A stretch of 51,795 nt of DNA from a virus, in IMG/VR virus record IMGVR_UViG_3300034071_000552, positions 1 through 51,795 of that record. One strand, written 5' to 3'. How positions within the stretch are numbered: position 1 is the stretch's first letter; each line of letters begins with the position of its first letter. The translations under genes and the position numbers were made by a program. Shown here one piece after another: positions 3,034-43,708 of the stretch. Below the pieces are notes generated by a model that was not told where the DNA came from, did not search any database, and saw nothing but the letters and a program-made list of their open reading frames with translations.

Positions 3034-3056
3034 CATTTTATTACAAATCAATGTAT

Positions 3057-3064
3057 TATATTTG
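3057..3064 (+). promoter_or_regulatory. Bacteroidota-type -7 box, TATATTTG
   Basis: TATATTTG ends 5 nt before the ATG at 3070, in the 36-nt gap after the membrane-protein gene. It could give the endolysin segment its own promoter. No clear TTG at -33. Confidence 0.5.
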
Positions 3065-3069
3065 TTGTC

Positions 3070-3354: not shown

Positions 3355-3355
3355 T

Positions 3356-3850: not shown

Positions 3851-5008
3851 ATGGGTAAATGGACATCGTTTAATAGCGAGATAATTGAATTGCTTCAAGA
3901 AAACGAGGCCATGAGCAATCATCAGTGCGCACAGACAATTTTAAAGACAGATAAGTCAAAGGATGAAAGCATAGATGTTAATAGTTTAACCCAGCATATT
4001 AGAAGACATAGGGCTGAGTTACTAGATAAAAACGAGGGTATTTATAACGCTACAGAAGAGTTAGATGTCCCGAATAGTAAGGTAAAACATCTGTGGGTTA
4101 AGACTAAGAATACATCGTTATTTGTAAAAAACCCAGACTACAAGGACAACGAAGAAAATGATTACGAGTTATTAAGAGCAAAGTTACTAGAAGAGATAAA
4201 AGGATATGCACCTAGTATTGAGAAAATAGAAAGAGTACAAAGCACAGACGAGCACTTATTGGTACTAGACCCAAGCGATTTACATATCGGTAAGCTATGT
4301 TCATCTTTTGAGACAGGAGAAGATTATAACTCCCAAATTGCTGTCAAAAGAGTAATGGAAGGTGTTAAAGGATTACTAAATAAAGCGTGTTCATGGAACG
4401 TGAACAAGATAATTTTCATAGGTGGTAACGATATACTACACGTTGACAATCCGAAAAATACAACGACAGCAGGTACGCATCAGGACTGCGATGGGATGTG
4501 GTATGATAACTTTGTGATTGCAAAGAAGTTATACATTGATATAATATCTATGCTATTAGGTGTTGCAGATGTACACTTTACTTATAATCCTTCTAATCAC
4601 GATTTTTCAAATGGATTTTTCCTATGTCAAGCAATAGAGGCTTACTTCTCTAAGTGTGAAAATATTACATTTAGTATAGATATGAGCCATAGAAAATACA
4701 GCGTATATGGTTCAAACTTAATAGGTACTACACATGGAGATGGTGCCAAGACAGCAGACCTTCCTTTGTTGATGGCACACGAAAGCCCTGAGTGGAGTTC
4801 ATGTAAGCACAGATACATTTATACTCACCATATCCATCACAAGATGAGTAAGGACTATATGAGTGTTTGCGTAGAGAGCTTGAGAAGTCCTAGCGGAACC
4901 GATGGGTGGCATCATCGAAACGGTTACGCCCATGCACCTAAAGCAATAGAGGCATTTATTCATCATAAAGACCACGGACAAGTAGCACGATTAAACCATA
5001 TATTCTAA
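3851..5008 (+). CDS. Calcineurin-like metallophosphoesterase
   Basis: A 385-residue protein. Residues from about 135 carry the two-metal metallophosphoesterase motifs in order: DLHIGK (near 143), GGNDILHVDN (near 191-200), NPSNHD (near 248), GTTHGDG (near 294) and a His-rich YTHHIHH (near 324-330). The family hydrolyses phosphodiesters, in phages often DNA or RNA. The N-terminal ~65 residues (EIIELLQENEAMSNHQCAQ and HIRRHRAELL) look like a small helix-turn-helix region, suggesting a DNA-directed nuclease or phosphatase. It opens a small gene cluster just after the endolysin. Substrate unknown. Confidence 0.88.
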   Translation: MGKWTSFNSEIIELLQENEAMSNHQCAQTILKTDKSKDESIDVNSLTQHIRRHRAELLDKNEGIYNATEELDVPNSKVKHLWVKTKNTSLFVKNPDYKDNEENDYELLRAKLLEEIKGYAPSIEKIERVQSTDEHLLVLDPSDLHIGKLCSSFETGEDYNSQIAVKRVMEGVKGLLNKACSWNVNKIIFIGGNDILHVDNPKNTTTAGTHQDCDGMWYDNFVIAKKLYIDIISMLLGVADVHFTYNPSNHDFSNGFFLCQAIEAYFSKCENITFSIDMSHRKYSVYGSNLIGTTHGDGAKTADLPLLMAHESPEWSSCKHRYIYTHHIHHKMSKDYMSVCVESLRSPSGTDGWHHRNGYAHAPKAIEAFIHHKDHGQVARLNHIF

Positions 5009-7076: not shown

Positions 7077-7342
7077 GAGAAGAGATTATAAAAGCTGGAA
7101 GAATAGCTGTAAAGGAATTAATAAAAGTGGCCAAGGAAGCCATTATAACCAACGATGAAGATAATCTATCAGCTGATAAGCTAAAGAGCGCTGCACAGGC
7201 TAAAAGAATAGCAATAGAGGATGCGTTTGCCATACTAGATAAGATAGATGCGCAAGAAAGCGCTATTGGATTAAGTAATAACACTGCCGATAGCAGGATA
7301 GTTGATACTAAGGGATTTGCAGAAAAGAGGTCATCTAAATAA
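7058..7342 (+). CDS. Candidate terminase small subunit
   Basis: A 94-residue helical protein with a pattern seen in small proteins next to TerL in Bacteroidota phages: EIIKAGRIAVKELIKVAKEAI, then SADKLKSAAQAKRIAIEDAFAIL. Its stop overlaps the start of the large terminase by 1 nt. The small subunit normally recognises packaging sites and stimulates the motor. Assignment rests on position, size and helical make-up; no helix-turn-helix is certain. Confidence 0.68.
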   Translation: MHTTDLREEIIKAGRIAVKELIKVAKEAIITNDEDNLSADKLKSAAQAKRIAIEDAFAILDKIDAQESAIGLSNNTADSRIVDTKGFAEKRSSK

Positions 7343-9561: not shown

Positions 9562-11971
9562 AAAAAATATATCAATTCCGAAACAACCATTCCCTAGTGC
9601 AAACGTAAAAGATTCAATAAAGGCTACTGAAGAGTATGGATTAAAGATAGGTAAAGCAATACAGCACGAATGGTTTCAAGAGGGCGGAGGTACTTGTAAG
9701 TTTTTTACTAGATGGACAGACTTCCATAACACTAGGCTATATGCTAGAGGTGAGCAGCCTATTCAGAAGTATAAGAAAGGGTTTGGAGAAGACTTGTCGC
9801 ATATAAACATGGACTGGACTCCAGTTCCAATTATCCCAAAGTTTGTTGACATCGTTGTAAACGGTATGTCAGATAGAACCTTTAGTACAAAGGCTAGAGC
9901 TGTTGATGCTATGTCTGCTGAAGGAAGGAATAAGTACCAACAAATGGTTAAGTCTCAAATGGTAGCAAAGCCTTTCTTGCAGTTAATGAAAGATAAGTTT
10001 GGGGTTGATAATTTTAAGGTTCCTCCAGACGAATTGCCAGAAACGAATGACGAGCTTGCTTTGTTCATGCAAATGAAGTATAAGCCGAGGATAGAAATAG
10101 CTGAGGAGACAGCTATTGATACAATATTTGAATTAAACAATTATGAAAATCTAAGAGATAAGTTTCACTACGACTTAACAACTCTTGGTATTGGGATAGG
10201 TAAGCATACATTTAATATTAATGATGGTATTAGAATTGAGTATGTTGACCCAGCAACAGTCGTTCATTCATACACAGAGTCTCCTACATTCTCTGATTGT
10301 TTTTATTGGGGAGAAGTTAAGACAGTGCATGTAAGTGAGCTATTGAAACTAGACCCAGATATGGATGAAGAAGAGTTAGAGGAAGCGGTAAGAGGTGGGC
10401 AGGAATTTGGTGATTACTATATAGGTATGGCAAAATACAGAGAAAGTGTTTTCCAAAAAGATACTGTAACATTACTATACTTTAATTATAAAACAGCTAA
10501 CAGCATTGTTCATAAGAAAAAGAAATTAAATAATGGAGGAGAGAAGGTAGTTAAGAAAGACGATAGTTTTAATCCAGAGCCAAATGAGAATTTTGAAAAG
10601 ATAGACAAAAAGATTGAGGTATGGTATGAAGGCGTAATGACGCTAGGGTCAAATATGCTTATCAAATGGGAGCTTTGCAAGAATATGGTAAGACCAGATG
10701 CCGCAATACAAAAGACATATTCAAACTATGTAGCATGTGCCCCAAGAATTTATAAGGGAGAGATTGAGTCTTTAACTAAGCGAATGATTCCTTTTGCAGA
10801 CTTAATACAGATGACGCATTTAAAGTTGCAGCAGGTATTAAGCAGAATTGTTCCAGATGGTGTGTTTATAGATGCAGACGGTATTAATGAAGTTGACTTA
10901 GGGAATGGGGGTTCATATACTCCAGAGGATGCATTAAACATGTACTTCACAACTGGTAGTGTTATTGGGCGTTCATACACTCAGGATGGTGAATTGAATC
11001 ATGGTAAGATACCTATCCAAGAGTTAAATAGTAACAATGGACAGGGTAAAATAAATAGCTTAACTAGCACTTATAATCATTACTTAGGTATGATTAGAGA
11101 TGTGACAGGGTTAAATGAAGCAAGAGATGCAAGTACCCCTGACCCAAATAGTTTGGTGGGGCTTCAAAAGTTAGCTGCTGCAAATAGTAATACAGCGACT
11201 AGGCACATTCTAAATGCCAGCGTATATATTACAAAGATGTTAAGTGAGGCTATATCATATAGGATTGCTGATGTGTTAGAATACTCTGATAATAGAGAAG
11301 AGTTCGCAATGCAGATTGGTAAGTACAATTATGACATGCTAGATGAGATAAAAGCATTGCCATTGCATAGCTTCGGAATCTTCTTAGAGGTATCACCAGA
11401 CTCAGAGCAAGAAAATCAATTAGAGAATAATATTGGTGTTGCATTGAAAGTAGGGCAGATTAATCTTGAGGATGCTATTGACATCCGAAACATGAAAAAT
11501 ATAAAGCTTGCTAACGAATTGTTGAAGCAAAGAAGAAAGTCAAGAGATAAGCAGCGAATGGATGAGCAGAAGCAGGCTATGGAGCAGCAAACTCAAGGAA
11601 ATATTCAATCAGCACAAGCATCTAGCCAAGCAAAAGCTCAGTCTCTACAGATTGAAGCGCAAGTTAAAATGCAAGTAATTCAAGCTCAATCTCAGGCAGA
11701 CATGGCTAAGATGGAAAGAGAAGCTCAATTAAAACTTGAGTTGATGAACCAAGAGTTTGAAATGCAGATGAGATTGAAGCAAGCAGAGATAGAGTTGGTT
11801 AATGGAAGAGACATGAAGAAGGAAGAAGCTAAAGATAATAGAACAAAAATACAAGCAACACAGCAATCAAAATTAATAGAGCAAAGACAAAACAAAGCGC
11901 CATCTGTAGACTTTGAGTCAAACGAGGATTCTTTAGACGGATTTAGTCTTGGAGAGTTTGAACCGAGGTAG
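9551..11971 (+). CDS. Portal protein
   Basis: An 806-residue protein directly after TerL. The family forms the dodecameric gate at the capsid vertex. Seen: an N-terminal domain with KFFTRWTDFHNTRLYARGEQ, a central part with MIPFADLIQMTHLKLQQVLSR and an Asp/Gly-rich segment (VDLGNGGSYTPEDAL), and RDVTGLNEARD near residue 516, typical of portal proteins in this phage group. From about residue 660 the chain is a long Gln/Lys/Glu-rich helix, as in portal barrel or crown regions, ending in an acidic tail. A separate protease or MuF domain is not seen. The promoter for the scaffold gene starts at its stop codon. Confidence 0.9.
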   Translation: MRDKKNISIPKQPFPSANVKDSIKATEEYGLKIGKAIQHEWFQEGGGTCKFFTRWTDFHNTRLYARGEQPIQKYKKGFGEDLSHINMDWTPVPIIPKFVDIVVNGMSDRTFSTKARAVDAMSAEGRNKYQQMVKSQMVAKPFLQLMKDKFGVDNFKVPPDELPETNDELALFMQMKYKPRIEIAEETAIDTIFELNNYENLRDKFHYDLTTLGIGIGKHTFNINDGIRIEYVDPATVVHSYTESPTFSDCFYWGEVKTVHVSELLKLDPDMDEEELEEAVRGGQEFGDYYIGMAKYRESVFQKDTVTLLYFNYKTANSIVHKKKKLNNGGEKVVKKDDSFNPEPNENFEKIDKKIEVWYEGVMTLGSNMLIKWELCKNMVRPDAAIQKTYSNYVACAPRIYKGEIESLTKRMIPFADLIQMTHLKLQQVLSRIVPDGVFIDADGINEVDLGNGGSYTPEDALNMYFTTGSVIGRSYTQDGELNHGKIPIQELNSNNGQGKINSLTSTYNHYLGMIRDVTGLNEARDASTPDPNSLVGLQKLAAANSNTATRHILNASVYITKMLSEAISYRIADVLEYSDNREEFAMQIGKYNYDMLDEIKALPLHSFGIFLEVSPDSEQENQLENNIGVALKVGQINLEDAIDIRNMKNIKLANELLKQRRKSRDKQRMDEQKQAMEQQTQGNIQSAQASSQAKAQSLQIEAQVKMQVIQAQSQADMAKMEREAQLKLELMNQEFEMQMRLKQAEIELVNGRDMKKEEAKDNRTKIQATQQSKLIEQRQNKAPSVDFESNEDSLDGFSLGEFEPR

Positions 11972-28612: not shown

Positions 28613-30010
28613 ATGACATACGCAGGATATAAACCAAATGAAACAGCAAGTCTAGGGGCAATAACTGCATCTGGTCTTGACGCTATTACTAAAATAAACT
28701 TAGAGAGAGAAAAGTTAGATGCTGCAAGACAGGTTAAGAAAGATGCCTTAGCAGCCAAAGCTGCTCAGGATAAGGAAAAGCAAGCCGCAAAAGAAGCAGC
28801 TGAATTGGAGAAAGAGAAAAACTCTACTAAAGAGAAACTTTCTAAAAATGAGGGGAAAACCCCATTTACCATAAACTTACAAGCAAACATGGGGGAAGTT
28901 GGGGTAAAAAATATAGACTTAGACCCATCTTCACAGAATGCGCTACTTGGTCAGGCAAGCACATGGCATGCAATGCTGGGTAACATGGACGCAACTACAG
29001 CATCATTAGCAGAAAATAAAAATCCTTCCATGCAGTCAGTTTGGGTATTTGAAAGAACTGTTGGCAATTTTCAGAAACAAACAGTAAGTACTATTGTTGA
29101 GGGGAAAGGTAACGATGCTAAGTTTATTTTCAAGAATGATAAAGGAGAAACTTTATCAATAGATGGAACTTTAAATATAAAGAATAATGTAAAGAACACA
29201 ATGCCTAACTTAGATGAGGATTATAATAAATGGTATGCCCAAATAGGTGAACAGCAAAAAGAAGTTGGTAGAACCAGTAAGCTTGATGTAGGAGTTCAAG
29301 AAAATTTTACAGCTAAAAAAGATGAAATTAAGAGTTTGATTCTTTCAGACAGAGATAACCTTGGGAATAGAGCTTATTTAGTATTTCAAAAAAATGGTAA
29401 GACTCCAATATTCTATAGTGAAGGCGATGACCAAAAAGAATTATTAGCTAAATCTGGCGTTATTGAATCAAATGCTGAGTTTATAAAAATGGTAACAAAC
29501 ACAAACGGTGAGACCTATGCTGAATTAACTCAAACCCAAAAAGATGCAATGAAAAAAGATGTAGACGATGAGCTTGCTATAAGAGTTAAAAAGAGTCAGC
29601 ATACACGACCAGAGGGAGGAGGTAATATAACTATTACACAACAGATTGGAGAGGCTAAAACTAAAGAGGCAGGGAAATATTATGATAAGGTAATAAAAGG
29701 GAATAATCCTACAGAGGCGCAATTTGTTAGGGGAGCACAAGCAGCTGGGAATATATTAGCAGGGAATACTGCTCCATACTATGACCCTATTACAAAAACA
29801 ACTAAGGACACTCCAGTATATCAAAATGATGGTAAAGGGAATATAAAGATACTATATGAAGATAAATCTGGTAATATAGTACAATATAAATCAGACCCAA
29901 GTATGACTAGAGAGGAGCTAGTAGCAGACTTAGAACAATTTTATTCTTTTAGTAAAGTAAAGAGTGGGGCAGAAGCTGTTGCTACAACTCAAGCAGTAAC
30001 AGGTAAGTAA
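28613..30010 (+). CDS. Internal virion/cargo protein
   Basis: A 465-residue protein, 4 nt after the previous stop. The N-terminal region is coiled coil with many Lys, Ala and Gln (residues about 30-90), the rest is mixed and polar with a Gln/Ala/Thr tail ending TTQAVTGK. No known motif. Its place between a gp14-like protein and the giant polyvalent protein, and its low-complexity helical start, fit a packaged cargo protein ejected with the DNA. I do not know its exact family. Confidence 0.72.
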   Translation: MTYAGYKPNETASLGAITASGLDAITKINLEREKLDAARQVKKDALAAKAAQDKEKQAAKEAAELEKEKNSTKEKLSKNEGKTPFTINLQANMGEVGVKNIDLDPSSQNALLGQASTWHAMLGNMDATTASLAENKNPSMQSVWVFERTVGNFQKQTVSTIVEGKGNDAKFIFKNDKGETLSIDGTLNIKNNVKNTMPNLDEDYNKWYAQIGEQQKEVGRTSKLDVGVQENFTAKKDEIKSLILSDRDNLGNRAYLVFQKNGKTPIFYSEGDDQKELLAKSGVIESNAEFIKMVTNTNGETYAELTQTQKDAMKKDVDDELAIRVKKSQHTRPEGGGNITITQQIGEAKTKEAGKYYDKVIKGNNPTEAQFVRGAQAAGNILAGNTAPYYDPITKTTKDTPVYQNDGKGNIKILYEDKSGNIVQYKSDPSMTREELVADLEQFYSFSKVKSGAEAVATTQAVTGK

Positions 30011-30031: not shown

Positions 30032-33000
30032 ATGGAATTACAAGACGGAGAAGATTTCCCTAAAGGAAACACAAAGCACAACGAGAGTGATGTATTACTT
30101 TACAATAAGTTGACATCTGAGTTGCCAGATTTAAAAATAGCACCTGTAAAGAATGCAGATGAAATAGATGACAACAATTTCAATTTCTTACAGTATAAGA
30201 AAGCTAAGTCTAATTTTGCTGATATGCCTGATGTGGCATTACCTACAGACATAACTCCAGAGCACATGGCAGCAGTTGCCAAAGCTTCATCAAATAGTTA
30301 TTTTAACAGCTTACTTGACAATGCAAAGGATGATAAAGATGTTAAAAAAAGAGGCTTTAAGAAATTAACATATACTGATGTTATTAATCCAGATGACGAA
30401 AGTTATTTAGAACAAAAAAATGCAGATATAATAAGCGAAAAGGCTACTAAATTAGGGAAGTCAGTAGGGATTGACTATATGGAAGCCATACCTACTGCTG
30501 GTACCCAACAAAAAAATCCTTTAGCATATACTAATTATGGTCAATTAAATCAAATAAATGAACGACTTACTGAAAAAGCTAATAATAAAAATTTAGCAAT
30601 TGTAAATTCTAAGATAAAAAAAATAAATGCATCTCTTCCTAAAGAGGAAAGGATGCAAGAATTGACTTCTTTTAAAGAGTATGAATCTCAAGAACCTATA
30701 ATAAAAGAAAAAGCTAAAAGAGCAGATTTATTAAATACTAAAAAGAGTAATGATATATTTTTAAAAGGAGTAAATGAGGCTGCTAAAAAAAGTGGTATAC
30801 GTCAGTTCGTAGATATTGCAGATTATAATAAAAACTATGAGCCAGAAACACTAAAAAATATAAATAAGGAAGCAAAGAAAAATGGCACTCGTGAATATAC
30901 ATCGATTGAAGATTATAACAAAAATTTCGAGAAAGAAACACTAAAGAGTATAAATGATAAAGCGAAGAAAAATGGCACTCGTGAATATACGTCACTTGAA
31001 GAATACAACAAAAGTGTATCGGTAAAAATAGTACCTAAAAAAATTGTTTATTCTAGGGAAGAACAGAAAAAACAAATAGTAAAAGCTGGTAAAGCTTCTG
31101 GTACTATCCCAAAATGGGTATCTGAGAAAGATGCAGTAAAAATGTTATCAAAATATGAGGGGAACTTTACCTCTACTCAGGTTGGGGCTATTGCAGAAAC
31201 AGCAAGAACATTTAATGAAAATATAACAAAAAAAGAAGCAGCTAGGAAACTAACAAAGCCAGTGCCAAGTTTAAGTGAAACATTACAATTTGGTTTTGCT
31301 TCAGTTAATCCTATTAACATAAAAGCTCCAATCCCCCCTCCCCCTGACCAAAGAATCGCCCCTAAGCGTGTATATTCTGAGGAAGATGTAAATATGGCAT
31401 TTCTTGAATCGGGGAGATTGTCTGGGGTTATCCCAAAAGGATTATCTAATAAAGATGCATTAAAATTAATAGCAGAAAAAAGACTCCAACTTGACCCAAA
31501 AACAAAAGATATTATTTCTGAAGCAGTAGTAACATCAAAGGAAAAAAGAAAAGAGATAGCTACTGCTTCACATGAAGAAATATTAAATAATGCAGCATTT
31601 AGAACACAAGAGTTATTAAGTGCTGATACTCCAACTCAAAATCTTTATAAGCAAAGTAGAGAAGGTAAGGTTGCGGATATTATCAATAGAATACAAAGCG
31701 GCCTTCAAGGAGAGGTAGGCAATGAGACTGTTTCTGAAGCAGAGTGGAAATACCTAAAAGAAGTTGCTCCAAAAGCAGCAGAATCATTATGGAAAGAAAT
31801 TAATCCTAATAATAGCAATAAATTAAGCGATGTAATTGCTGTCTATAAGGATAAAGAAAAAGCCTATAAAGTTACATCAGCTAACTCTAGGGCAAAGTCA
31901 ATATTTGCAGCATTGCCTCAAGATTGGCTTGATGAGAATGGGCAAATATCTGAGGCTAGCTTATTGGAGAAGCATAAAGAATTTAATGATAACTATGCTC
32001 AATCTCTTATTGCTTTGGAAGGAAAGTATCCTATGCAATATGCTGAAATAAAAACAGCAGATGGGATGCAGAATAGACCAATAGGTAGAGGTTATGTGTA
32101 TGCGGCAGAAAAAAGAGAATTAGAAAATAGAAGGGCGGAAGTAAATAATATTATTGCAGAAGCTAATGGGGTAATGATTGTTAGACAAGTTGATAAAAAA
32201 ACTGGGAAACAATTAAGTGCTTTATTAAGCCCAGATGCAATAGGTGAAAAAATATTTAAAGTACAATCACCTGACATATATAAAGTATATGTAAAAGGTG
32301 GAAAGACAGACAGAGGTACAAAAGAAGAGATTAAAAGATTAGGTATTAACGCATTATATGCAAGTAATGATAAGAATGCTATTGAGCTAGCGTATGTAGA
32401 TGAAAGAAAACTAAATGAAACAAGTTTAGATTTAGAAAAAGAGACCTATAATAGGATGGGGGCAGAGATTTATAAGCAAAGTGGTTGGGGAAAATACATA
32501 GGCACTCTTATGAGAGATGTAGATGAACTAGATAAGATAGCAGAGCAATTGCCATATCAGAATAGAAAAATGTGGTTTGGGAAATTAAGGGCTATAGAAG
32601 AAAATAAAACATTTGGAACTAATATTCCTGTGGGGGGTGCCATAAATAGTGCACTATATGGCTTTGGTAAAACAGCAGCATCTACAGTAAATACATTATC
32701 TGGGGCAGTTGGGTTCAGGACTGATAGCGATATAGCAAATGATGCACTTGCTGGACAAGATAATAAATATTCAGTTGTCGGAGAAACAAAAGAAGCTCAA
32801 AAAATAAAAGCACAATTAGAATATAAATTAAGTAATAAAGAACAGCTAACATATAGTGAATTACAGAATTTAGAAAATGCAAAAAATTTACTAGGGACTA
32901 AGACATTTACATCAAAATTCATAGATAAAGGATTTGAATTAGTAGGTCAAGTTACATTCCAAGCTGTTGTCGCAAGAGGGCTTGGTGGGTTGTCTGCTGG

Positions 33001-36000
33001 TGCATTAGGGGAGATAGGCTTGCTATCTGAAGCAGGATTGATATCTGAAGAAGCAGCAATTGTTGCTGGGTCTGGAGAATTTGGAACAGCGATGTCAGGA
33101 GCAACTACCATAGGTGAAATAGGTGTTAGTAAAACAACTCTTGATACTTTAGCAAATGCTTATGTAGCTTATGCTTCTAGTTTAGACCAAGCAAAACAAG
33201 AGGCAGTGTTATTAATGCCAGATAGTAAAGTTAAGCAAGAAATATACGCAAATGTTGTAGGATTATTAAATGCAGCAACAGCACATATATTCCCAGAACA
33301 AAAGTTATTTGACCCTTTTAAAAAAGAAATGTCTGCAACTATTACAAATATTGTTAATGATTTATCTGCATCAAAACTTAGTAAGGAAGCATTATCTGGT
33401 TACGTTAAAAAAGCATTATTAGCATCGAAGAGTTTTGGCATAGCAGTAATAAAAAATAACCAAAAGGAATCAGCTGAAGAGGTCGCAGGGCAAATAGGTA
33501 CAAGTATTGCATTAGCAATATTAGCACCAAATAAATTTAATAATAAAGAAGAGTTTGATAAGATTTTAGATACATACGTTCAAACTACAGTAGATGGTAC
33601 TTTATTATCACTATTTGCTGGAGGGAAAGAATATTTTTCAAATGTAGTAGGAATCCCTTTATTATCAAAAGTAGGTACAGATGAAAATGTATATAATAAA
33701 GTAATACAAGGTATTAATTCCCAAGTATCTAATAAAGAAATAAGTGAAGCAGAGGGAGAAGAAAAAAAATATATAGCTAATACGATTAGATATATATATA
33801 AAAAATCAATACCTAAAGTTGCTGAACTTTCACCTAATTTAAAAGAAAGAGATATACAGAAGTATGCAATAGTATTAGCAAATGAATACGTTGTTAGAAA
33901 AAAGATAGATACCGAATCAGACCCTGTTATAAAAGCTAAATTAGAGGCTCAAGTAAAGGATAGTGAAGCTAAAAGAGAAGCTATAATAGATGAAAAACTA
34001 ACAACTGTTAATAACTATGAATTAGTTACAATTGAGGAGGCAAATAAGATAGCAAAAGCTGAAGCAGATAATGGCCAAATAGTAATTACTAACGCAGATG
34101 GTACTGTAACAACAACGCCTACTAAAACTATAGATGGTGTAGGTACTTATGAGTTTGATAATAAATTATATGTTCAAGATAAAGATGGTAATATAACCTA
34201 TGAAAATGGTGTTATGGCACCAATAGCAGAGCAAGAAAAGGTTAAAAAAGAAGGATTATTTACTCCGCAGACAGCTACGACTAAAATAGCTGATATAAAC
34301 AAGGAGTTGGCAACATTGACCATTGGAGCAAACGAGACTAAAGAAGAAATAGATGCAAAGAATGCAAGGAAAGTTGAGTTGCAATCTGAACTTAAAACAT
34401 TAGAAGCGGAGGTTATTACTGATGCTATTGCTAAAAAAGCTGCTAAAAATGGCACTACAGTTGAATTTGAGACTAAGAAAGCTGATATAGAAAAAAGAAG
34501 AAAAGAAGAGCTATCTACCAGCGATTATAAAAAGCAAGTAGGTCTAAATTTCAGTAATGGCAAGTATCAGATAAGTACATTTGATGGAGAAGAGGATAGT
34601 TTTTCTCAAGATGTAGAGCTTACAAAAGAAGAGAAAAATGAGTTAAGCAAAATAGATGCAGACTCAAAAGCTGATGGAGATAGCCCTAGCATAGCAGCTA
34701 GAAAGGCTGAATTATCTGAAAAAATTATAAATAGGTTGGGCATTTATGGTGTTACAGCTACATCTCCTAATATAATCAATGCTAAGTATGACAAAGAATT
34801 AGCTACACTAGAAACTTCTGTTAACCCTGCTGCCATATCTGCATTAAAAGAAGTAGAAGTATTAAGAACTGAAGAGCAAAAAGAACTTGATACTAAAATA
34901 GAAAATGCAGAGCAGTATAGAGTAGATGGTAAGGTAGATAGAACTAAGCTTACAAGCGATGCAGATAGAAAGGCGTTTGATGAGGTTTATGCTAAATATG
35001 ATAAGTTAATTGCCCCATTATTAGAGAAGGCAAAACCTAAGATAAAAACAAAACTAGAGGCTTTACCAACAGGGACAAGAGCTTCTGATGGGGAAGCTGC
35101 TAGAAAGGTTCATGCACCTTTATTCTCAGCTGCAAAAAGAGCATTAAAAGTATTAAATCAATTATTCCCTAGTGTAGATATACATTTCCATGATAACAAT
35201 GAAGATTTCCAAGAAGTTTTGAATGTTACAGCAGGAGGGAAGCCAGCTAGAACTACTCAAGGTAACTTTACATATTCAAAGGATGGTAAAACAATTCGTA
35301 TTGATATAAATTTAGCTAGTGGGGCTACAACAGAAACGGTTGTACATGAAGCGGCACATGCTATACTATTCAAGGCATTTGGAGATACCCCAAGACTTTT
35401 TAAATACTTTAAAAATCAAGTAGCAAGAAATATTGGTTTTACTAAAAGCGCAAAATTAAAAAAGTTTATAAGGAACTATGAAGATATAGAAAAGCCTGAA
35501 GAGTACCTTGTACAATTAGGAGCCATTTTAAAAGATGGAGAGAATATAGAGCCTACTGTATTTAGACGTATAGCCGAAGCTATTAATAAGATAGTTTTTA
35601 AATATACAGGCGGCAAATTTAAACCGTTTGAAGATGTAAAGAAGAGTAACGATAAAGTTAGATATTTTGCTTCTTTAGTAAATGCCATTAAGACTGGTGA
35701 TTTAGGCAGCATAGACATTAATTCACAGTCACAATTTAGGAGAAATCAAACGGGTGGTTCCAAGCAATCAAGAGGTGGTATTACTGCAACTGATATGAAG
35801 TCTATGACGGTTGCCGACAATGGTGATTTATTATTCTTTCATTACGGTGACATTAAGGGGTCTAAAATAGACGCAAGGAAAGGAACACCAAAAGCATATA
35901 CAACCGACAAGCGTGTATATACAGCTAACTACTACTACACTAACGAGAGCGATAGAGAAGGAATGGTTGGCGGAAAAGTAAATGTTGTAAGAGTTCCAGC

Positions 36001-39000
36001 CGATAAAGTATATAATTTTAATAAAGATGTTTTAGGATTATTTGATGAGGCTAAGAAAAACTCAGAGGCTCATTCAAAAGGCCAAGCATTTTCTCCTAAT
36101 AGACAGGCAGATTTTATTGCTCAATTAGCAGCTAAGAATGGTTTTGATATGGTTGTAGCTAAGTGGGGCAATGGGTACCGTGCTGAGTCTCCTAAGGCTC
36201 TTCCTATTGACGCAGCACTAACCAAGCAGATGCGAACCAATGGAAGCCTATCAACTGCCGCTGTAGATGATAAATTAAACCAAGACATATACAATGCAGC
36301 TGCATCTAAAGCAAATGGGAATAGTGAGAAGTACAGAAGCGCATTTTATGGGATAAAAAATATTACCGCTAAGGACATTATGGAGCATCCTATTTTGTCA
36401 AGAGGTATTCCTAAAAAGTTAGCAGATAAATATAATGGTGGACAGATTAGGTCTAAGCAGAGCTTAAAGGCTGGAGACAAGGTTAAAATAGAAGGGGTAA
36501 GTGTAACGATTCCTAGTGAAGTACAGCAGGATTTATTAAAGCAAGAAAGAACCGCAAAGAGTTACTTTGATGAAAAGGTAAGGTTAATGGAACCTTCTCC
36601 ATTGTCAAAAGAAGAGATTAAGTCTATTTTAAATAGAGATGATATAGCTATACTTACGGGAACAAACCCTGATGGGAATGCTGTTGCCGATAATACTAAT
36701 AATCTATTAAATAAAAAAGCAGAGGATTGGCTTAAAAGAAATGGGTATACATACCATCAGGTTACTGGGAAGTATGGACAGACAGAGTCGTCATTTCTTG
36801 TAGAGGGGATGACAGGTAATGTAGCCTTAGAGTTTGCTAAAATATTCAAGCAAGACAGTGTCCTTCAATCTGAAGGGTTAATATATAGGGAAGGTACTAT
36901 AGAAAAAAGAATCGCTGATGGTGATGCCTTTGGTCTTGATGTAACAGAGCCAGAAGCCGATTATGTAAGCGCAATAAAAACTAATACTGGTGAGGTTGTA
37001 GGTTTCCAATTTGGTCTCGATTTAGGGAATAAGGTGCAATATGAGGTTAAATCTAAGCAGTCTAAAACTGAGGATGCGTTGAAGATTAATAGCATTGAAG
37101 ATACATACGGAAAATATCACGTAGCTCCTGAATCAGGACATACAAAAATAGATGTCACAGGAAGCGAGCCGATAAAAAAAGGAGAAACATTTGGAACGGT
37201 AACCTATTCTAATAAAGAAGAAGGAGATGTTGTAGTGGATTCTTTTTCTATTAATGATATTGATAAATTATCAAAATCGAGTTCAGGATTTATAACAACC
37301 GCAATAAACCTTGGAAGAGGATTTATTTATTCTAAACCATCCCCGAAGGAAATAACTGAACAATTATTCGGTAAGGGGAAAAAATACAAAACCCTTTCCG
37401 ATGAAAACAAAGCAAAAGTAGATAAGGAAAGGGCAAAACAAACCACTAAGTTTAATTTGCCTTGGTCAAATAAAAAAGCAGGAAAAACTCTTTTTAACTA
37501 TGTAGAGAGATACAGAGACAAGAGACCTAGCGAAAATAAAATAGCAGATGAATTATTTAAAAAGGGTATAGTTAAGGGAGTAAAATACAAAGAACTTTCT
37601 GTAGACGACAAAGCAAAGGTAAGAGCCGAAAGGAATGAACAAAGTAAGTCAATAAAGGTTGAACCAAAGCCATCCGATTATTACGATGTAGTTAAAAAGA
37701 AATCAAAGGATATAATAAATTCTTTTAAGGAAGAGGTGAAAAATAATCTTCGTGCGTTATATAATAATGTATCTGAAGATTTTAAAGAAACATCAAGACA
37801 GTGGTATGATGGAGCAAATAGATTAGCACAGGGTATATCAGAATCGTATGGGATATCTCTTGAGCAATCTGCAGGTATACTTGCTGCTTTAAGTCCTAAG
37901 AATAATTGGTTTAATAATATCTCTGCTGCGGAGAGAGTTATACGTGCTTGGGCAGACCATCAGGACACTACTGTCACTAAAGAGATGGTTGCTCGTACTA
38001 TTGCTTACATGGAACGCAATGGGGACGCTCCGTTTGCAAAAGATATCAGAGCTGTATTCTCTGATACTAAAGGCAAGCCAATCTCTGAACTTGTGGAGGA
38101 GTATAAAAAAACTGGTAATGCTAAGGTACTTACTCAGATTGGTATAACAATGAGAATAATTGACCAATCTGAATATAGCCCAGTTGTTTATTCTGTATCA
38201 CCAGAAGGTTTTATTGATGGAAAATATGGTGTAATTGGTTGGTCAGGTGGAGCAGCATTATCAAATGCTGTAAGTATGCTTATTGACCCTAGTATGGAAA
38301 ACATAAGTTCAAGACTTGGTAATGGTAACAAAGTTCGTAACTTTTATGGAAACATTGCTGACCCTCAAAATCCTGATTTCTTAACGGCAGATACACACGC
38401 ATTTGCCGCTGGGCTAATGTTGCCAGCTTCCGCAAACGATGCTCAAGAATTTGGTATTTTTGATGGAGGAATGTCTGTGGAATATGCAATTTTTAAAGAT
38501 GCATACACAGAAATTGCAAAAGAATTTGGTATCTTGCCAAGAGAATTACAATCAATAACATGGGAAGCTGTAAGAGGTAGTATTAATACCGATAACAGGA
38601 CACCATCTATGGTGAATGAAATTAATAGAATATCTGAAGAATTTTTAACTAATGGAAAATCAAATGAAAATAGAACAAATGGAATACTCAAAAAATACCC
38701 AATCAATTTTTCAAGGGGAGAATGGTCTAACAAACGAGGAATTGAGGCTCAAAAAGGAATTTCTGGGACAGATGGAGGCGTTTCACAAAAAGCCGACACA
38801 GGAGGAAGCCCTTCAGTACTTGGAGACTTACGAGGGCAAAACGCCCAAGTGGGTAGCAGAACTGCCACAGTAGGCAGTAATGAAATTAAATCTAAGCAGT
38901 CAAGAACTGAAGATGCTAAGTCTGCATACGAAGCTAAGCTTGAGGAGAACTTAGAACAGCTAAGAGATGCTTATGGTAATGCAAGAAAGGCTGATACTGG

Positions 39001-42000
39001 TGTAAGAAAAATAAAAGAAGATAGCCCTACAAGCGTAGGGAACTTTATAAAAAGATTAATCAACGGAGCAACGCCTGAAGCAGCTGCTGAAGCAAAAGCT
39101 AAGTTGGTAGAGATGCAGCGCAAGTATCGTAAAGAGAAAGCTGAAATGAGAGCAATGTTGCCAAGAGAAAGAGGGGTTAATTTTGTAATCGAAAAGATAA
39201 GCAGAGCAGCAAGGAATGGTGATATAACACAAGATGAAGCAGATTTAGCTATTGACCTTTTAAGAAAGTCACCTAGTTTATTTGGCGACTTAGCTATTAG
39301 TATTACAAGTGGGAATAAAAAAGCTAATGGCGATGGTGTTCAAGGGTGGTATCGTGCCGCAGATGAATTAGTGAAAATATTCAAGAACCCTAAAGACCCG
39401 CTAACGGTTACCCATGAACTACTTCACCACACAGAAAGATTTCTTCCGCAAGAAGTAAGGGATGGCATCATAAAAGAATGGCATGCACAAGTACAAAGAC
39501 AGGCCGCTGATATTGCTAGTAAGCTAAAAACAGAAACAGACACTGACACTAGACAGCAACTAACACAGGCATTGCTTTACTTAGGTCTAGCAGAAGCAAG
39601 ACAGTTAGAGCCAGACTTTTTTAATGCCATGGCTATGGAGAACATCATGAAGAAGTACTTATCAGACCATACAGACAGTAAGGGTAACTTCAATAAAGGT
39701 CTTGGTGATTCTTGGTATCAATTATACAATCCTTCTGAATGGTGGGCGGTTAATGCAAGCAAAATTTTTAGAGACGCAAAAAATAAACCAGAGTTAAAAA
39801 CTTGGGCAGATAAAGCAAAGGCATTTTATAATTATTTAATTGACAGTATAAAGAAAGTATTTAAAGGCAATCCAATAGCTAACGTAGAGAAAGGTCTAAA
39901 AGCAATACTAGAAGGAAATACTCTTGAAAACATGGAAGGCAATATGCTTGCCAACTCAAAACAATCGTTAAACATTAAACAAAAAGAAAGTTTTGAACAG
40001 CGGAATTTCCAAGCTGAAGAAGGACAGCAGATATTTTCTAAACAGTCAAAAATTTCTAGCACAGAAGCTACTAAATTAAATGATGAGATAAACTTAAATA
40101 TTAATAATATTAATAATGGAAAACTGACTAATAAGGAAGCAGTAAAAAATATATTAGATTTAATAACAGGATTATTAAATGATAATAAAATATCTGAGAA
40201 GTCTGCTAATTCATTAAAGAAAAGATTTAAAGATATAAATGCAGCTTATAAAAATTCTGTAGATAGATTATTAGAATATGCTAATAAGATATTTAAAGAT
40301 GGGAAATATGCAGATAAAATATCTGAAATAAAATCTCTTAATAGAGCATTTAAGAAGGCTGCAAAAAATGATAAGATTCCTGTTAAGACTAGACAATTAG
40401 CTAGTTTATTTGCTAAGATAAATCCAGAAAGCATATCTGATATTAATGCTCATTTAGATATGGCAAAAAATATTGAAAAGGCAATTAAACAAAGCAAAAG
40501 AGAAAATGCAGAAGTAAAACTTAGGACACCTATAAAATTAGATAATGCATTCAAGTATGTTGAAGCAGCTACTAAAGAAGCTAAAGATTATGAAGCAAAA
40601 AATCCTCCTTTAATAAAAGTTGTAAATTCATTTAATGATGAAGAAAAAGCATTACAATATATTTCTGATAAATACAAAGAGTTTCAAGATGCTATAAAAA
40701 ATATTATTTCAAATGTAGTATTAACAGATGCAGAGATGGCTCAATTGAAAAACTTCTTGAAGTTATCTATTGATGATTTTGAGACTATGGAGGAGAAGAC
40801 ATCGGCAGTAGAAGCACTTGAGCACTTTGCGACCAATGAGGATATGGGTAAGATACCATTCCTTTTAAACAACCAGCAGGTAAATGCAAATATCAAAAAA
40901 GGGGTAGAAGTAATATTGCCTAAACTTAAATCAGTTAGTTTAATGTGGTTTAGTGAACAGAAAGCTAAGATAAGAGGTTGGGTTTATAATAAATTCCTGT
41001 ATGGTAATACTATTGATTATAATAAGGAACTAGCATACTTCATGAATCAATCGATTAGAAGAATAGATAATCTAATTGGTAATTTAAAAACCTATGAGGT
41101 ATTTGACAATACATTTAAGGCAATGGCCAGTGGGTATTCTAAATACATATTTAAAATAAAGTCAATGGATGCTGATGTTATCTTCCAAAAAGTATTATCA
41201 TCATTTAATGGAGATATGGAACAAGCGGTGAAGCATTGCTATAAGATGACAATGTACAAGCTACAACTAGAGTATGAATCTAACATTGGCAACATAGAAG
41301 TAATACCTGCAATAAAACATCTTAATGAAACATTGAAATCTGGTAATTTAACTAAAAAAGATAAGGCTGAATTAAGAAAATTAATTGATGAATTTTCTAC
41401 AATAGATGCGACTACTGGGGAGCAGAATATAGATACAACTAAAATATGGGATAGTTTTAATGAAGTTGAACAACAAGCAGCTGTATCACTTGCTGAACAC
41501 TATGCAAAGCTAACACCATACGCTCAACATGTTGCGGTATCTCTTAGGAATGTTCCATTTAACCCAAGAGCAAATTACATGATGTTAAATGTTGTAAGTA
41601 CTAGTCAATCTTTATCTGCTTTACCTCCAAGCGCTTCACAGGTTCTAACAGGTAGGGGGTCTACTGAAGCACAGACTATTAACCCAAGAGACGGAAACCC
41701 TCATCCAATTTCTCTCGACCCGTATAATACATTCAATACTGCAAATAGAGATATTATGATGGACTATTGTTTATTGAATCCAATTAAAACTGTTGAGGCT
41801 ATATTTGAGAAGTTAGTAGAAGATACAGCTGGGGATAAGCAAGCTAATGATGCTGCTAAATCACTACAGCTTATTTTTAAAGAAATAACACAGTCTGTTA
41901 TAAACAGAAGCATTGTAAATTCAGATAAAATAACAGATGGTATCATTAGTTATATAAAGAAAGTTGGTGCTAGGTATATGCTTTCTAGACCAACAAAAGC

Positions 42001-43708
42001 CACAGGGGAGTTTGGTGGTAACTTATCGTATGCTATTACTAGGTATGGCGAAAATCTAATTGAAGGAATGAAAAATAATTCCCTTCAGAGAAACTTTAAG
42101 TTGACAACAGTGATGGAAGTATTAAACAGTTATAGTCTTGATAGATTGTATCCACATAAAGGTGAGTCTGGAGCATTCTTAGACCCAAATAGCTTTGATA
42201 TAGATGTAAGAGATAAGAAACACTTCATTGATGGATTTAGTAATGCTACGCAAATAGCATATTATAATTCTTTATTGAAGGCGCAAAAAGGCGGAGAGTC
42301 TATTTCTGATGCATTGATGTCAGTCCCAGATTTATCTATTGGTAGATTTGCTTGGGAAGGAACATTTAGATTAACATTTAAGAAAGAGACTGGATTGGAT
42401 ATCGATATGGATAAAATAGCAGCAAAAGATTATGATTATTTAGAGAAATATAAAGATGAATTAGAGAAAGCTACAACAGAAGCCGACAGAGTTGTTGCAG
42501 AGATTGCTAATACAAGAAACCCATTTGTAGGTATTGCTAAAGAGGGCGCTTGGAGAGGAAAGATGTCAGAAATATTAATAATTAATAACTATATGACATC
42601 ATTTACAAAAACAGAAAATCAAAATGGTATTGATGCGGCTTATGCAGTAGCCTATGGTGGTAAAATAAGTAGAATTGATGGCATTAGAACAATAGCAGCA
42701 ATACTAGTTCGTAGTGGGGTGTATAATGTTGTAAAATATAAAGCTCAGTTAGCTTTATTAGCTATAGGATATGGACTTCTTAATGCCATAAAAGGTGGTG
42801 ATGATTCAGAAGAAAAACGTAGAAGAAGAGCTAGAGGTATATTAAAATACAATACAGTTGAGAATCCTGAAATTCAAGGAAGCATTACAGGCATAAAGGA
42901 TGCTGTAACTATGGGCAATGCTATACAAACATACGATAGCGCATGGTTAAAAAAGGCAAATCAATATGTAGCTCCAGAAGAATCAGCTTCACATTCATTT
43001 ATGAAAGGCATGGCTCAGGCAGGTGCAGGTATTATATTAGGAAGAAGTTCTGGAGGATTTTATAATAGCTTAGTTACTGCTCCACTTGTTGAATACGCTA
43101 ATGAAAAGTATATACATCCAGCAATATCATCTGACCCTTACAATAAGTATAGAGACGGTATAATGTACTCAAAAGTATATGACCCTAATAGACAAGACCC
43201 AGAACTTAATTTTATAGTAGATAACTCTGGAGCATTTCAGCCATTCATGAGAGCCTCAATATCAGCAGTAAGAACTTTTTATGATAGGTATGGTAGTGAG
43301 CTTGCTAAGGTTGAGAAGAAAATAGAAGACCACGAAAGAGGCGTATCTATGACAAGAGAGGATGCTACAAAGGATAAGTACTATGAATTAGTTAAAAGAA
43401 GAGATGCCTTGAAAGAAAAAGAAAAATCAATGAAAAGCATGACTTTGAAAAATATAATTGTCGGTGTAGGTACATCAACTGGAATATTGCCAGCAGGGAA
43501 AGATATTGATTTTGTTGGAGATAAGATTCTTAAAGATGAATCAGTGCCGAAAGATTGGAATGAAATAGTAGAGAAGTTTAAGGATTCACGAAACTATGAT
43601 GAGGGGACAATGAATCGTAGAAATAGAAACTACAAAGACATGGTTCTCCCAGAAGTATATCAACAACATGTATCACAAGGATATCCAATACCAGCGAAGA
43701 AGCCTTAG
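30032..43708 (+). CDS. Giant multidomain polyvalent protein (virion cargo candidate)
   Basis: A single 4558-codon frame, about a quarter of the window. In order: 30-residue repeats (254-330), a Pro-rich linker (near 432), two similar blocks with AGKASGTIPKWVSEKDA / SGRLSGVIPKGLSNKDA, a Gly/Ala-rich hydrophobic stretch (near 980-1035), a zincin (HEAAH 1772-1776; candidate third ligand Glu1823 or 1824), a possible ADP-ribosyltransferase-like domain (LFFHYGD near 1937), a DUF3293-like domain (2150-2335; AILTGTNPDGN), a helix-hairpin-helix-like phage domain (about 2560-2850; WYDGANRLAQGISES, LSPKNNW, NFYGNIAD), a second zincin (HELLHH 3128-3133; NPSEWWA Glu3236), a long helical region, and a C-terminal hydrophobic segment near 4235. 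SKQS occurs at domain borders (1910, 2141, 2341, 2954, 3309, 3336). Iyer, Burroughs and Aravind named this class 'polyvalent proteins'. No RNA polymerase or lytic transglycosylase motif was recognised. Ejection with DNA is inferred. Confidence 0.85.
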   Translation: MELQDGEDFPKGNTKHNESDVLLYNKLTSELPDLKIAPVKNADEIDDNNFNFLQYKKAKSNFADMPDVALPTDITPEHMAAVAKASSNSYFNSLLDNAKDDKDVKKRGFKKLTYTDVINPDDESYLEQKNADIISEKATKLGKSVGIDYMEAIPTAGTQQKNPLAYTNYGQLNQINERLTEKANNKNLAIVNSKIKKINASLPKEERMQELTSFKEYESQEPIIKEKAKRADLLNTKKSNDIFLKGVNEAAKKSGIRQFVDIADYNKNYEPETLKNINKEAKKNGTREYTSIEDYNKNFEKETLKSINDKAKKNGTREYTSLEEYNKSVSVKIVPKKIVYSREEQKKQIVKAGKASGTIPKWVSEKDAVKMLSKYEGNFTSTQVGAIAETARTFNENITKKEAARKLTKPVPSLSETLQFGFASVNPINIKAPIPPPPDQRIAPKRVYSEEDVNMAFLESGRLSGVIPKGLSNKDALKLIAEKRLQLDPKTKDIISEAVVTSKEKRKEIATASHEEILNNAAFRTQELLSADTPTQNLYKQSREGKVADIINRIQSGLQGEVGNETVSEAEWKYLKEVAPKAAESLWKEINPNNSNKLSDVIAVYKDKEKAYKVTSANSRAKSIFAALPQDWLDENGQISEASLLEKHKEFNDNYAQSLIALEGKYPMQYAEIKTADGMQNRPIGRGYVYAAEKRELENRRAEVNNIIAEANGVMIVRQVDKKTGKQLSALLSPDAIGEKIFKVQSPDIYKVYVKGGKTDRGTKEEIKRLGINALYASNDKNAIELAYVDERKLNETSLDLEKETYNRMGAEIYKQSGWGKYIGTLMRDVDELDKIAEQLPYQNRKMWFGKLRAIEENKTFGTNIPVGGAINSALYGFGKTAASTVNTLSGAVGFRTDSDIANDALAGQDNKYSVVGETKEAQKIKAQLEYKLSNKEQLTYSELQNLENAKNLLGTKTFTSKFIDKGFELVGQVTFQAVVARGLGGLSAGALGEIGLLSEAGLISEEAAIVAGSGEFGTAMSGATTIGEIGVSKTTLDTLANAYVAYASSLDQAKQEAVLLMPDSKVKQEIYANVVGLLNAATAHIFPEQKLFDPFKKEMSATITNIVNDLSASKLSKEALSGYVKKALLASKSFGIAVIKNNQKESAEEVAGQIGTSIALAILAPNKFNNKEEFDKILDTYVQTTVDGTLLSLFAGGKEYFSNVVGIPLLSKVGTDENVYNKVIQGINSQVSNKEISEAEGEEKKYIANTIRYIYKKSIPKVAELSPNLKERDIQKYAIVLANEYVVRKKIDTESDPVIKAKLEAQVKDSEAKREAIIDEKLTTVNNYELVTIEEANKIAKAEADNGQIVITNADGTVTTTPTKTIDGVGTYEFDNKLYVQDKDGNITYENGVMAPIAEQEKVKKEGLFTPQTATTKIADINKELATLTIGANETKEEIDAKNARKVELQSELKTLEAEVITDAIAKKAAKNGTTVEFETKKADIEKRRKEELSTSDYKKQVGLNFSNGKYQISTFDGEEDSFSQDVELTKEEKNELSKIDADSKADGDSPSIAARKAELSEKIINRLGIYGVTATSPNIINAKYDKELATLETSVNPAAISALKEVEVLRTEEQKELDTKIENAEQYRVDGKVDRTKLTSDADRKAFDEVYAKYDKLIAPLLEKAKPKIKTKLEALPTGTRASDGEAARKVHAPLFSAAKRALKVLNQLFPSVDIHFHDNNEDFQEVLNVTAGGKPARTTQGNFTYSKDGKTIRIDINLASGATTETVVHEAAHAILFKAFGDTPRLFKYFKNQVARNIGFTKSAKLKKFIRNYEDIEKPEEYLVQLGAILKDGENIEPTVFRRIAEAINKIVFKYTGGKFKPFEDVKKSNDKVRYFASLVNAIKTGDLGSIDINSQSQFRRNQTGGSKQSRGGITATDMKSMTVADNGDLLFFHYGDIKGSKIDARKGTPKAYTTDKRVYTANYYYTNESDREGMVGGKVNVVRVPADKVYNFNKDVLGLFDEAKKNSEAHSKGQAFSPNRQADFIAQLAAKNGFDMVVAKWGNGYRAESPKALPIDAALTKQMRTNGSLSTAAVDDKLNQDIYNAAASKANGNSEKYRSAFYGIKNITAKDIMEHPILSRGIPKKLADKYNGGQIRSKQSLKAGDKVKIEGVSVTIPSEVQQDLLKQERTAKSYFDEKVRLMEPSPLSKEEIKSILNRDDIAILTGTNPDGNAVADNTNNLLNKKAEDWLKRNGYTYHQVTGKYGQTESSFLVEGMTGNVALEFAKIFKQDSVLQSEGLIYREGTIEKRIADGDAFGLDVTEPEADYVSAIKTNTGEVVGFQFGLDLGNKVQYEVKSKQSKTEDALKINSIEDTYGKYHVAPESGHTKIDVTGSEPIKKGETFGTVTYSNKEEGDVVVDSFSINDIDKLSKSSSGFITTAINLGRGFIYSKPSPKEITEQLFGKGKKYKTLSDENKAKVDKERAKQTTKFNLPWSNKKAGKTLFNYVERYRDKRPSENKIADELFKKGIVKGVKYKELSVDDKAKVRAERNEQSKSIKVEPKPSDYYDVVKKKSKDIINSFKEEVKNNLRALYNNVSEDFKETSRQWYDGANRLAQGISESYGISLEQSAGILAALSPKNNWFNNISAAERVIRAWADHQDTTVTKEMVARTIAYMERNGDAPFAKDIRAVFSDTKGKPISELVEEYKKTGNAKVLTQIGITMRIIDQSEYSPVVYSVSPEGFIDGKYGVIGWSGGAALSNAVSMLIDPSMENISSRLGNGNKVRNFYGNIADPQNPDFLTADTHAFAAGLMLPASANDAQEFGIFDGGMSVEYAIFKDAYTEIAKEFGILPRELQSITWEAVRGSINTDNRTPSMVNEINRISEEFLTNGKSNENRTNGILKKYPINFSRGEWSNKRGIEAQKGISGTDGGVSQKADTGGSPSVLGDLRGQNAQVGSRTATVGSNEIKSKQSRTEDAKSAYEAKLEENLEQLRDAYGNARKADTGVRKIKEDSPTSVGNFIKRLINGATPEAAAEAKAKLVEMQRKYRKEKAEMRAMLPRERGVNFVIEKISRAARNGDITQDEADLAIDLLRKSPSLFGDLAISITSGNKKANGDGVQGWYRAADELVKIFKNPKDPLTVTHELLHHTERFLPQEVRDGIIKEWHAQVQRQAADIASKLKTETDTDTRQQLTQALLYLGLAEARQLEPDFFNAMAMENIMKKYLSDHTDSKGNFNKGLGDSWYQLYNPSEWWAVNASKIFRDAKNKPELKTWADKAKAFYNYLIDSIKKVFKGNPIANVEKGLKAILEGNTLENMEGNMLANSKQSLNIKQKESFEQRNFQAEEGQQIFSKQSKISSTEATKLNDEINLNINNINNGKLTNKEAVKNILDLITGLLNDNKISEKSANSLKKRFKDINAAYKNSVDRLLEYANKIFKDGKYADKISEIKSLNRAFKKAAKNDKIPVKTRQLASLFAKINPESISDINAHLDMAKNIEKAIKQSKRENAEVKLRTPIKLDNAFKYVEAATKEAKDYEAKNPPLIKVVNSFNDEEKALQYISDKYKEFQDAIKNIISNVVLTDAEMAQLKNFLKLSIDDFETMEEKTSAVEALEHFATNEDMGKIPFLLNNQQVNANIKKGVEVILPKLKSVSLMWFSEQKAKIRGWVYNKFLYGNTIDYNKELAYFMNQSIRRIDNLIGNLKTYEVFDNTFKAMASGYSKYIFKIKSMDADVIFQKVLSSFNGDMEQAVKHCYKMTMYKLQLEYESNIGNIEVIPAIKHLNETLKSGNLTKKDKAELRKLIDEFSTIDATTGEQNIDTTKIWDSFNEVEQQAAVSLAEHYAKLTPYAQHVAVSLRNVPFNPRANYMMLNVVSTSQSLSALPPSASQVLTGRGSTEAQTINPRDGNPHPISLDPYNTFNTANRDIMMDYCLLNPIKTVEAIFEKLVEDTAGDKQANDAAKSLQLIFKEITQSVINRSIVNSDKITDGIISYIKKVGARYMLSRPTKATGEFGGNLSYAITRYGENLIEGMKNNSLQRNFKLTTVMEVLNSYSLDRLYPHKGESGAFLDPNSFDIDVRDKKHFIDGFSNATQIAYYNSLLKAQKGGESISDALMSVPDLSIGRFAWEGTFRLTFKKETGLDIDMDKIAAKDYDYLEKYKDELEKATTEADRVVAEIANTRNPFVGIAKEGAWRGKMSEILIINNYMTSFTKTENQNGIDAAYAVAYGGKISRIDGIRTIAAILVRSGVYNVVKYKAQLALLAIGYGLLNAIKGGDDSEEKRRRRARGILKYNTVENPEIQGSITGIKDAVTMGNAIQTYDSAWLKKANQYVAPEESASHSFMKGMAQAGAGIILGRSSGGFYNSLVTAPLVEYANEKYIHPAISSDPYNKYRDGIMYSKVYDPNRQDPELNFIVDNSGAFQPFMRASISAVRTFYDRYGSELAKVEKKIEDHERGVSMTREDATKDKYYELVKRRDALKEKEKSMKSMTLKNIIVGVGTSTGILPAGKDIDFVGDKILKDESVPKDWNEIVEKFKDSRNYDEGTMNRRNRNYKDMVLPEVYQQHVSQGYPIPAKKP
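30791..31018 (+). repeat. Three 30-codon tandem repeats in the giant protein N-terminus
   Basis: Units begin at 30791, 30881 and 30971, exactly 90 nt apart. Each has the form [SN]G.R[QE][FY]..I.DYNK..E.ETLK.IN..AKK. The second and third share the identical GGCACTCGTGAATATAC. The third copy is incomplete and merges into unique sequence. Confidence 0.88.

What the first reader, a model, noticed from the sequence alone, without database searches (positions are those of the whole stretch)
30032..43708. A 4558-residue polyvalent protein with two separate zincin motifs and many phage domains
The chain has HEAAH (1772-1776) and HELLHH (3128-3133), each followed by a candidate third ligand (Glu1823/1824 and Glu3236), separated by a possible ADP-ribosyltransferase-like domain, a DUF3293-like domain and a helix-hairpin-helix-like domain. 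Two metallopeptidases in one probably ejected protein suggests cutting of host proteins, or of the protein itself. It follows internal virion genes, so delivery with the DNA is the simplest reading. Domain names beyond the zincin motifs are tentative.
Basis: partly seen in the sequence, partly recalled or inferred. Interest (0 to 1): 0.82.

Follow-up and report, generated by a model that had tools for sequence, protein, structure and literature searches.

The report
Giant phage-delivered protein with two zincins
A short-tailed phage, related to phages of marine and freshwater Flavobacteriia, encodes one 4558-residue protein that is very probably injected with its DNA and carries two intact metal-protease domains among other swappable domains; it is a large, well-preserved member of a known class (polyvalent proteins), and its near-total lack of cysteine matches the ejected proteins of short-tailed phages T7, P22 and N4.

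Summary
ORF 30032-43708 (+) encodes 4558 aa with exactly two HExxH motifs (0.03 expected): HEAAH 1772-1776 and HELLHH 3128-3133. Each heads a conserved domain. In 71 Zn1 sequences H1772, E1773, H1776, E1823 and E1824 are invariant. In 45 Zn2 sequences HExxH is in 44 and E3236 in all 45. The two profiles are related (hhalign 92.5%), pairing E3236 with E1824; Zn1 also matches zincin IrrE (E 0.0017). Order: Zn1, ART-like, DUF3293, DUF7178 (helix-hairpin-helix), Zn2, C-terminal regions. Relatives at the same locus permute or replace these modules. The ART label is unproven: no ART family matches, and the usual catalytic Glu is mostly Gln.

Delivery is supported indirectly. It is the last gene of the virion operon. 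A same-position protein of Cellulophaga phage phi40:1 was found in virions by MS/MS, though without detectable homology. It has 2 Cys in 4558 residues (27.6 expected), like the Cys-free ejected proteins of T7, P22 and N4.

This is a polyvalent protein in the sense of Iyer et al. 2017, who already report multi-zincin cases and propose self-processing. Novelty: new member. Host-cutting versus self-cutting is undecided. Structure searches were inconclusive.

The parts
30032..43708 (+). Giant polyvalent ORF, 4558 aa, last gene of the virion operon
30032..30931 (+). N-terminal region 1-300 with about 30-aa repeats, shared with G018, G020, G021
34847..35041 (+). Conserved segment 'C' (1606-1670), shared with G013, G020, G021, elemoF
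35120..35698 (+). Zincin 1 (1697-1889)
   Evidence: 71 unique sequences with invariant HExxH and EE; IrrE profile match E 0.0017; related to zincin 2
35345..35359 (+). HEAAH motif (1772-1776)
35501..35503 (+). Third zinc ligand candidate Glu1824
   Evidence: E1823 and E1824 71/71; E1824 aligned with E3236
35780..36250 (+). ART-like domain (1917-2073); H1937 69/70, Y1969 70/70; assignment tentative
36440..37048 (+). DUF3293-containing domain (2137-2339)
   Evidence: Pfam 6.8e-8; G014, elemoF
37697..38599 (+). DUF7178 domain (2556-2856), predicted helix-hairpin-helix; invariant K2767, R2769, T2785, D2787, H2789
   Evidence: Pfam 1.9e-26; 72 unique sequences; model pLDDT above 85 for most of 2590-2780
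39149..39931 (+). Zincin 2 (3040-3300)
   Evidence: Erwinia Pavtokvirus DarB-like giants 30-31% over 98%; 45-sequence alignment
39413..39430 (+). HELLHH motif (3128-3133)
   Evidence: HExxH 44/45, E3135 44/45
39737..39739 (+). Third zinc ligand candidate Glu3236 in SExWAVN
   Evidence: 45/45
40145..40870 (+). Conserved region M (3372-3613), found in 9 giants
42293..42931 (+). Conserved C-terminal region T2 (4088-4300), shared with elemoF gp18 and G008
28613..30010 (+). Upstream 465-aa virion-operon gene with no Cys, predicted co-ejected; same position as phi40:1 gp100

Best explanation
The ORF encodes a polyvalent protein packaged in the head of a short-tailed phage and ejected into the cell with the DNA. 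It has shared N- and C-terminal regions (packaging/ejection role inferred) and a swappable middle set of enzyme-like modules. Both zincin domains are probably zinc-binding and active. The likeliest use, about 45%, is post-entry self-processing that frees modules; cutting of host proteins is next, about 35%. Shown: domains, ligand conservation, gene position, module shuffling, purifying selection, Cys depletion. Inferred: packaging, ejection, catalysis and substrate.
For: Invariant ligands in two large families. Zn1 and Zn2 profiles related and Zn1 to IrrE. Purifying selection against near relative G018: dN/dS about 0.12 for Zn2 and DUF7178, dN 0 for the ART-like domain, 0.62 in the linker. Last gene of the virion operon, as in elemoF, phi13:2, phi40:1 and ctfjg026. 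phi40:1 gp101 annotated from MS/MS of virions. Homologous elemoF gp18 annotated 'structural protein', basis not stated. Cys 2/4558 against 27.6 expected, matching T7 gp15/16, P22 gp7/16/20 and N4 gp50/51, all Cys-free. Polyvalent precedent: PMC5512222.
Against: No proteomics on this phage. phi40:1 gp101 has no detectable homology to it. P1 DarB, also virion-borne, is not Cys-poor, so the Cys argument may hold only for short-tailed phages. Foldseek found no significant PDB match. Some giants at the same locus lack HExxH (G001, G008, G013, G017) or have a broken motif (G004 HEAWE), so the zincin is not needed for packaging.
Confidence: 0.72

Rival explanations
1. Both zincins are host-directed effectors: after injection they cleave host proteins such as defence or regulatory factors, and the giant is not self-cut.
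For: Zn2 is a swap-in domain, absent from other giants of this phage group but present in unrelated giants; N4 vRNAP carries a zincin yet is packaged unprocessed (PMC5512222); zincin order relative to other modules is not fixed.
Against: No host target known; Iyer et al. favour processing as a common role because zincin is the hub domain.
Confidence: 0.35
2. Zincins act before packaging, trimming the protein during head maturation as proposed for P1 DdrB.
For: P1 DdrB (HELGHH) is reported to be processed before packaging (PMC5512222; motif seen).
Against: Giants with no HExxH sit at the same locus; similarity of Zn1/Zn2 to DdrB is only motif-level.
Confidence: 0.15
3. The giant is a purely structural internal virion protein and the zincin domains are inactive remnants.
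For: Some relatives lost the motif (G004 HEAWE); position among virion genes.
Against: Zinc ligands invariant over 71 and 44-45 diverged sequences; dN/dS near 0.1 in Zn2.
Confidence: 0.08

Closest known systems
Phage-type polyvalent proteins (Iyer et al. 2017, PMC5512222)
   Same: Unrelated enzyme-like domains in one giant protein encoded with virion genes; zincin as common domain; one to five zincins reported, about 8% of zincin-bearing ones with more than one
   Different: These two zincin families, the ART-like domain and DUF7178 are not matched by the Pfam models of that work
DarB-like giants of Erwinia phages PEp14, Pavtok, Stean (4914 aa in PEp14)
   Same: Carry the same Zn2 domain (30-31% over 98%), follow a virion structural gene; PEp14 giant Cys-free
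   Different: The PEp14/Pavtok giants are annotated with methylase, helicase and transglycosylase; no such domain was found in the window protein
Elemovirus gp18 (Flavobacterium phages)
   Same: Same locus; shares C, Zn1, ART-like, DUF3293, T2
   Different: DUF3293 lies before Zn1; no DUF7178; no Zn2
N4 virion RNA polymerase
   Same: Giant, Cys-free, ejected, contains HExxH
   Different: Contains an RNA polymerase; zincin similarity is only motif-level
P1 DdrB/DarB
   Same: Head-packaged; DdrB has HELGHH
   Different: Myovirus; DarB not Cys-depleted; no significant sequence similarity of the zincins

Membership tests
Polyvalent protein (phage type) | Several unrelated domains in one polypeptide | tested here: met
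Polyvalent protein (phage type) | Encoded with virion or packaging genes | tested here: met
Polyvalent protein (phage type) | Packaged and injected | not testable with these tools
   Indirect only: positional MS/MS counterpart, Cys depletion
Zincin metallopeptidase, Zn1 | HExxH plus downstream Glu ligand, conserved | tested here: met
   71/71
Zincin metallopeptidase, Zn1 | Zincin fold | tested here: inconclusive
   Helix/strand/HExxH helix/Glu helix order in the model, IrrE profile match, no significant Foldseek hit
Zincin metallopeptidase, Zn2 | HExxH plus downstream Glu ligand, conserved | tested here: met
   HExxH 44/45, E3236 45/45
Zincin metallopeptidase, Zn2 | Zincin fold | tested here: inconclusive
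   HExxH and E3236 in helices, sheet region low confidence, no Foldseek hit; profile related to Zn1
ART-PolyVal (PF18760) | Profile match | tested here: not met
   No match in G000 at E up to 1, none in 28 homologues
ART superfamily (H-Y-D/E) | Catalytic triad | tested here: inconclusive
   H1937 and Y1969 conserved; acidic position is Gln in 62 of 70 at 2052; D1999 invariant but its role is unknown
HhH-GPD DNA glycosylase | Profile or fold match | tested here: not met
   No PDB sequence match, hhalign to EndoIII negative, no Foldseek hit; only K2767/D2787 spacing and a predicted HhH resemble it

The most novel reading that the evidence does not exclude
Near-absence of cysteine is a general mark of proteins ejected through short tails, and this locus is an ejection slot in which modular enzymes, including two related zincins that free the modules after entry, are swapped between phages.
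Probability: 0.35. Interest if true: 0.62.

Novelty: new member of a known kind. Interest (0 to 1): 0.45.

Why it matters
It gives two well-bounded zincin families with no Pfam model found here, ready for a simple test of whether polyvalent zincins cut the carrier or the host. The cysteine pattern (0 in T7 gp15/16, P22 gp7/16/20, N4 gp50/51; 0.015% in giants with Zn1 against 0.65% in neighbouring ORFs) could become a cheap predictor of ejected proteins in short-tailed phages. The invariant residues of DUF7178 make it a candidate for an undescribed enzyme or DNA-binding domain.

Tried and rejected
HhH-GPD glycosylase reading of DUF7178: suggested by K2767...TxD2787TH, but PDB profile search, EndoIII hhalign and Foldseek were negative. 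ART as ART-PolyVal: not met. Homology of phi40:1 gp101 and phi13:2 gp127 to this giant: not detected, so they count only as positional counterparts. Homology of Zn1/Zn2 to P1 DdrB or N4 zincins: motif-level only. Multi-domain alignments A6, A8 and A9 were discarded because rows fell on the wrong domain; A5 and A7, used for the models, still hold some misplaced rows, so the models are weaker than their depth suggests. Search for literature on DUF7178: none.

Full report
OBSERVATION. ORF 30032-43708 (+) is open for 4558 codons. It has exactly two HExxH motifs, HEAAH at 1772 and HELLHH at 3128; a composition shuffle gives 0.03. Pfam finds DUF7178 (1.9e-26, curated threshold passed) and DUF3293 (6.8e-8, passed) and a sub-threshold SprT-like match over zincin 1.

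CONTEXT. The window is a virus record of 51795 bases. PHROG matches give terminase (7342-9561), portal (9551-11971), virion structural proteins and tail proteins on the + strand, then helicase and primase/helicase genes on the - strand. By terminase the relatives are ctfjg026 (64.5%), Flavobacterium Elemovirus (43.5%), Maribacter Panino, Cellulophaga Baltivirus/Callevirus and Tenacibaculum Gundel_1. In Elemovirus, phi13:2, phi40:1, ctfjg026 and Panino a large gene (1691 to 3859 aa) closes the same operon; the phi40:1 one is annotated from MS/MS proteomics. A near-identical relative (G019, 62470 bp) has its giant gene split by the contig ends, so the phage genome is probably circularly mapped at about 62 kb and the window is incomplete.

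ZINCIN 1. Residues 1697-1889 are found in 15 sequences of giants of this phage group, HExxH intact in 14 (G004 reads HEAWE). In 71 unique sequences H1772, E1773, H1776, E1823 and E1824 are invariant (these were collected with a pattern that includes HExxH, so the HExxH count is partly by construction, the EE count is not). A profile matches IrrE, an M78-type zincin, across the strand-turn-HExxH segment (E 0.0017). The model shows N-terminal helix, strand, helix, hairpin, HExxH helix, and E1824 in a later helix, the order described for zincins in PMC5512222; Foldseek gave only weak hits, among them a putative zinc peptidase (4l7a) and MATCAP.

ZINCIN 2. Residues 3040-3300 occur in this phage group only in the window and its near-identical relatives, but match Erwinia phage DarB-like giants over 98% of the domain, and 80 viral and 5 genome loci. 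HExxH is kept in 44 of 45 sequences and E3236, in SExWAVN, in 45 of 45 (the viral loci were picked by SExWAVN or by a second, N-terminal pattern, so the E3236 count is partly by construction while the HExxH count of the viral loci is not). Profile comparison of the two zincin families gives 92.5% probability, E 4.8e-7, with E3236 on E1824. So the second domain is a distant relative brought in from another phage lineage, not a recent duplication (inference). A 2855-aa giant (L270) carries the two in the other order.

OTHER MODULES. ART-like 1917-2073: H and Y conserved in 69 and 70 of 70; the last motif is R-A-Q/E; no Pfam ART match. DUF7178 2556-2856: 72 unique sequences with invariant W2591, Y2592, K2767, R2769, N2774, P2778, T2785, D2787, T2788, H2789, W2844, E2845; model with pLDDT above 85 over most of 2590-2780 and a helix-hairpin-helix at about 2755-2776. 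Stand-alone DUF7178-like ORFs of 206-225 aa occur in relatives and Panino. Elemovirus has DUF3293 before Zn1; G020 shares Zn1-ART-like (79%) and the C-terminus (60%) but replaces the DUF3293-DUF7178-Zn2 block, and has a sub-threshold ART-PolyVal match there. Between window and G018, dS ranges from 0 (Zn1) to 0.86 (3301-3620), a recombination mosaic, and dN/dS is about 0.12 in Zn2 and DUF7178.

DELIVERY. No proteomics exists for this phage. Besides gene order, composition speaks: 2 Cys in 4558 aa where the other virion genes predict 27.6 (P 4e-10); 170 giants with Zn1 average 0.015% Cys against 0.65% in other 500-900 aa ORFs of the same loci (relatives and overlapping loci are not independent). 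Controls: N4 vRNAP 0/3500, N4 gp51 0/644, T7 gp15 0/747 and gp16 0/1318, P22 gp7, gp20, gp16 0/1309 together, while most portals, terminases and tail proteins of those phages have Cys; some short non-ejected proteins (N4 major head, P22 gp8, gp26) also have none; P1 DarB has 9/2255. That the T7 and P22 proteins and N4 vRNAP are ejected is established knowledge; for N4 gp51 it is assumed from its position. The upstream 465-aa gene also has none. A likely reason (inference): passage unfolded through the tail and an oxidising periplasm selects against thiols.

MECHANISM. Packaging and ejection are inferred as above. The zincins are probably active. Self-processing after entry is put first because zincin is the commonest domain of such giants and Iyer et al. 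propose it; host cleavage is close behind. Obligatory processing before packaging is less likely since giants without any HExxH occupy the same locus.

NOVELTY. PMC5512222 already described the class, its zincins, multi-zincin members and the self-processing idea. New here: the two families and their relation, the module shuffling at this locus, and the Cys pattern with controls.

Noticed in passing
28613-30010 and 30032-43708, and L472-L476: Near-absence of Cys in proven ejected proteins of T7, P22 and N4 and in these giants, but not in P1 DarB: a possible general signature of ejection through short tails.
   Followed up: partly
37697-38599: DUF7178 has over a dozen invariant residues in 72 diverged sequences and a predicted helix-hairpin-helix; K2767 to D2787 spacing resembles DNA glycosylases but profile tests were negative.
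   Followed up: partly
30740-31020 (residues about 236-330): About three 30-residue tandem repeats (KKNGTREYTSxEDYNKNxExETLKxIN type) near the N-terminus.
   Followed up: no
35080-35731 against L138: 218 codons of Zn1 are nucleotide-identical to G018 while neighbouring stretches differ: recent recombination.
   Followed up: partly
L087 442-12021 (ctfjg026): Giant annotated 'reticulocyte binding/rhoptry protein' has two HEFGH motifs (1615, 2500), perhaps a second two-zincin design; the Panino giant is annotated 'tRNA methyltransferase'. Both names look like misannotations.
   Followed up: partly
window ends: The near-identical G019 contig is 62470 bp with the giant gene split by its ends, so the 51795-bp window probably lacks about 10 kb of the genome.
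   Followed up: no
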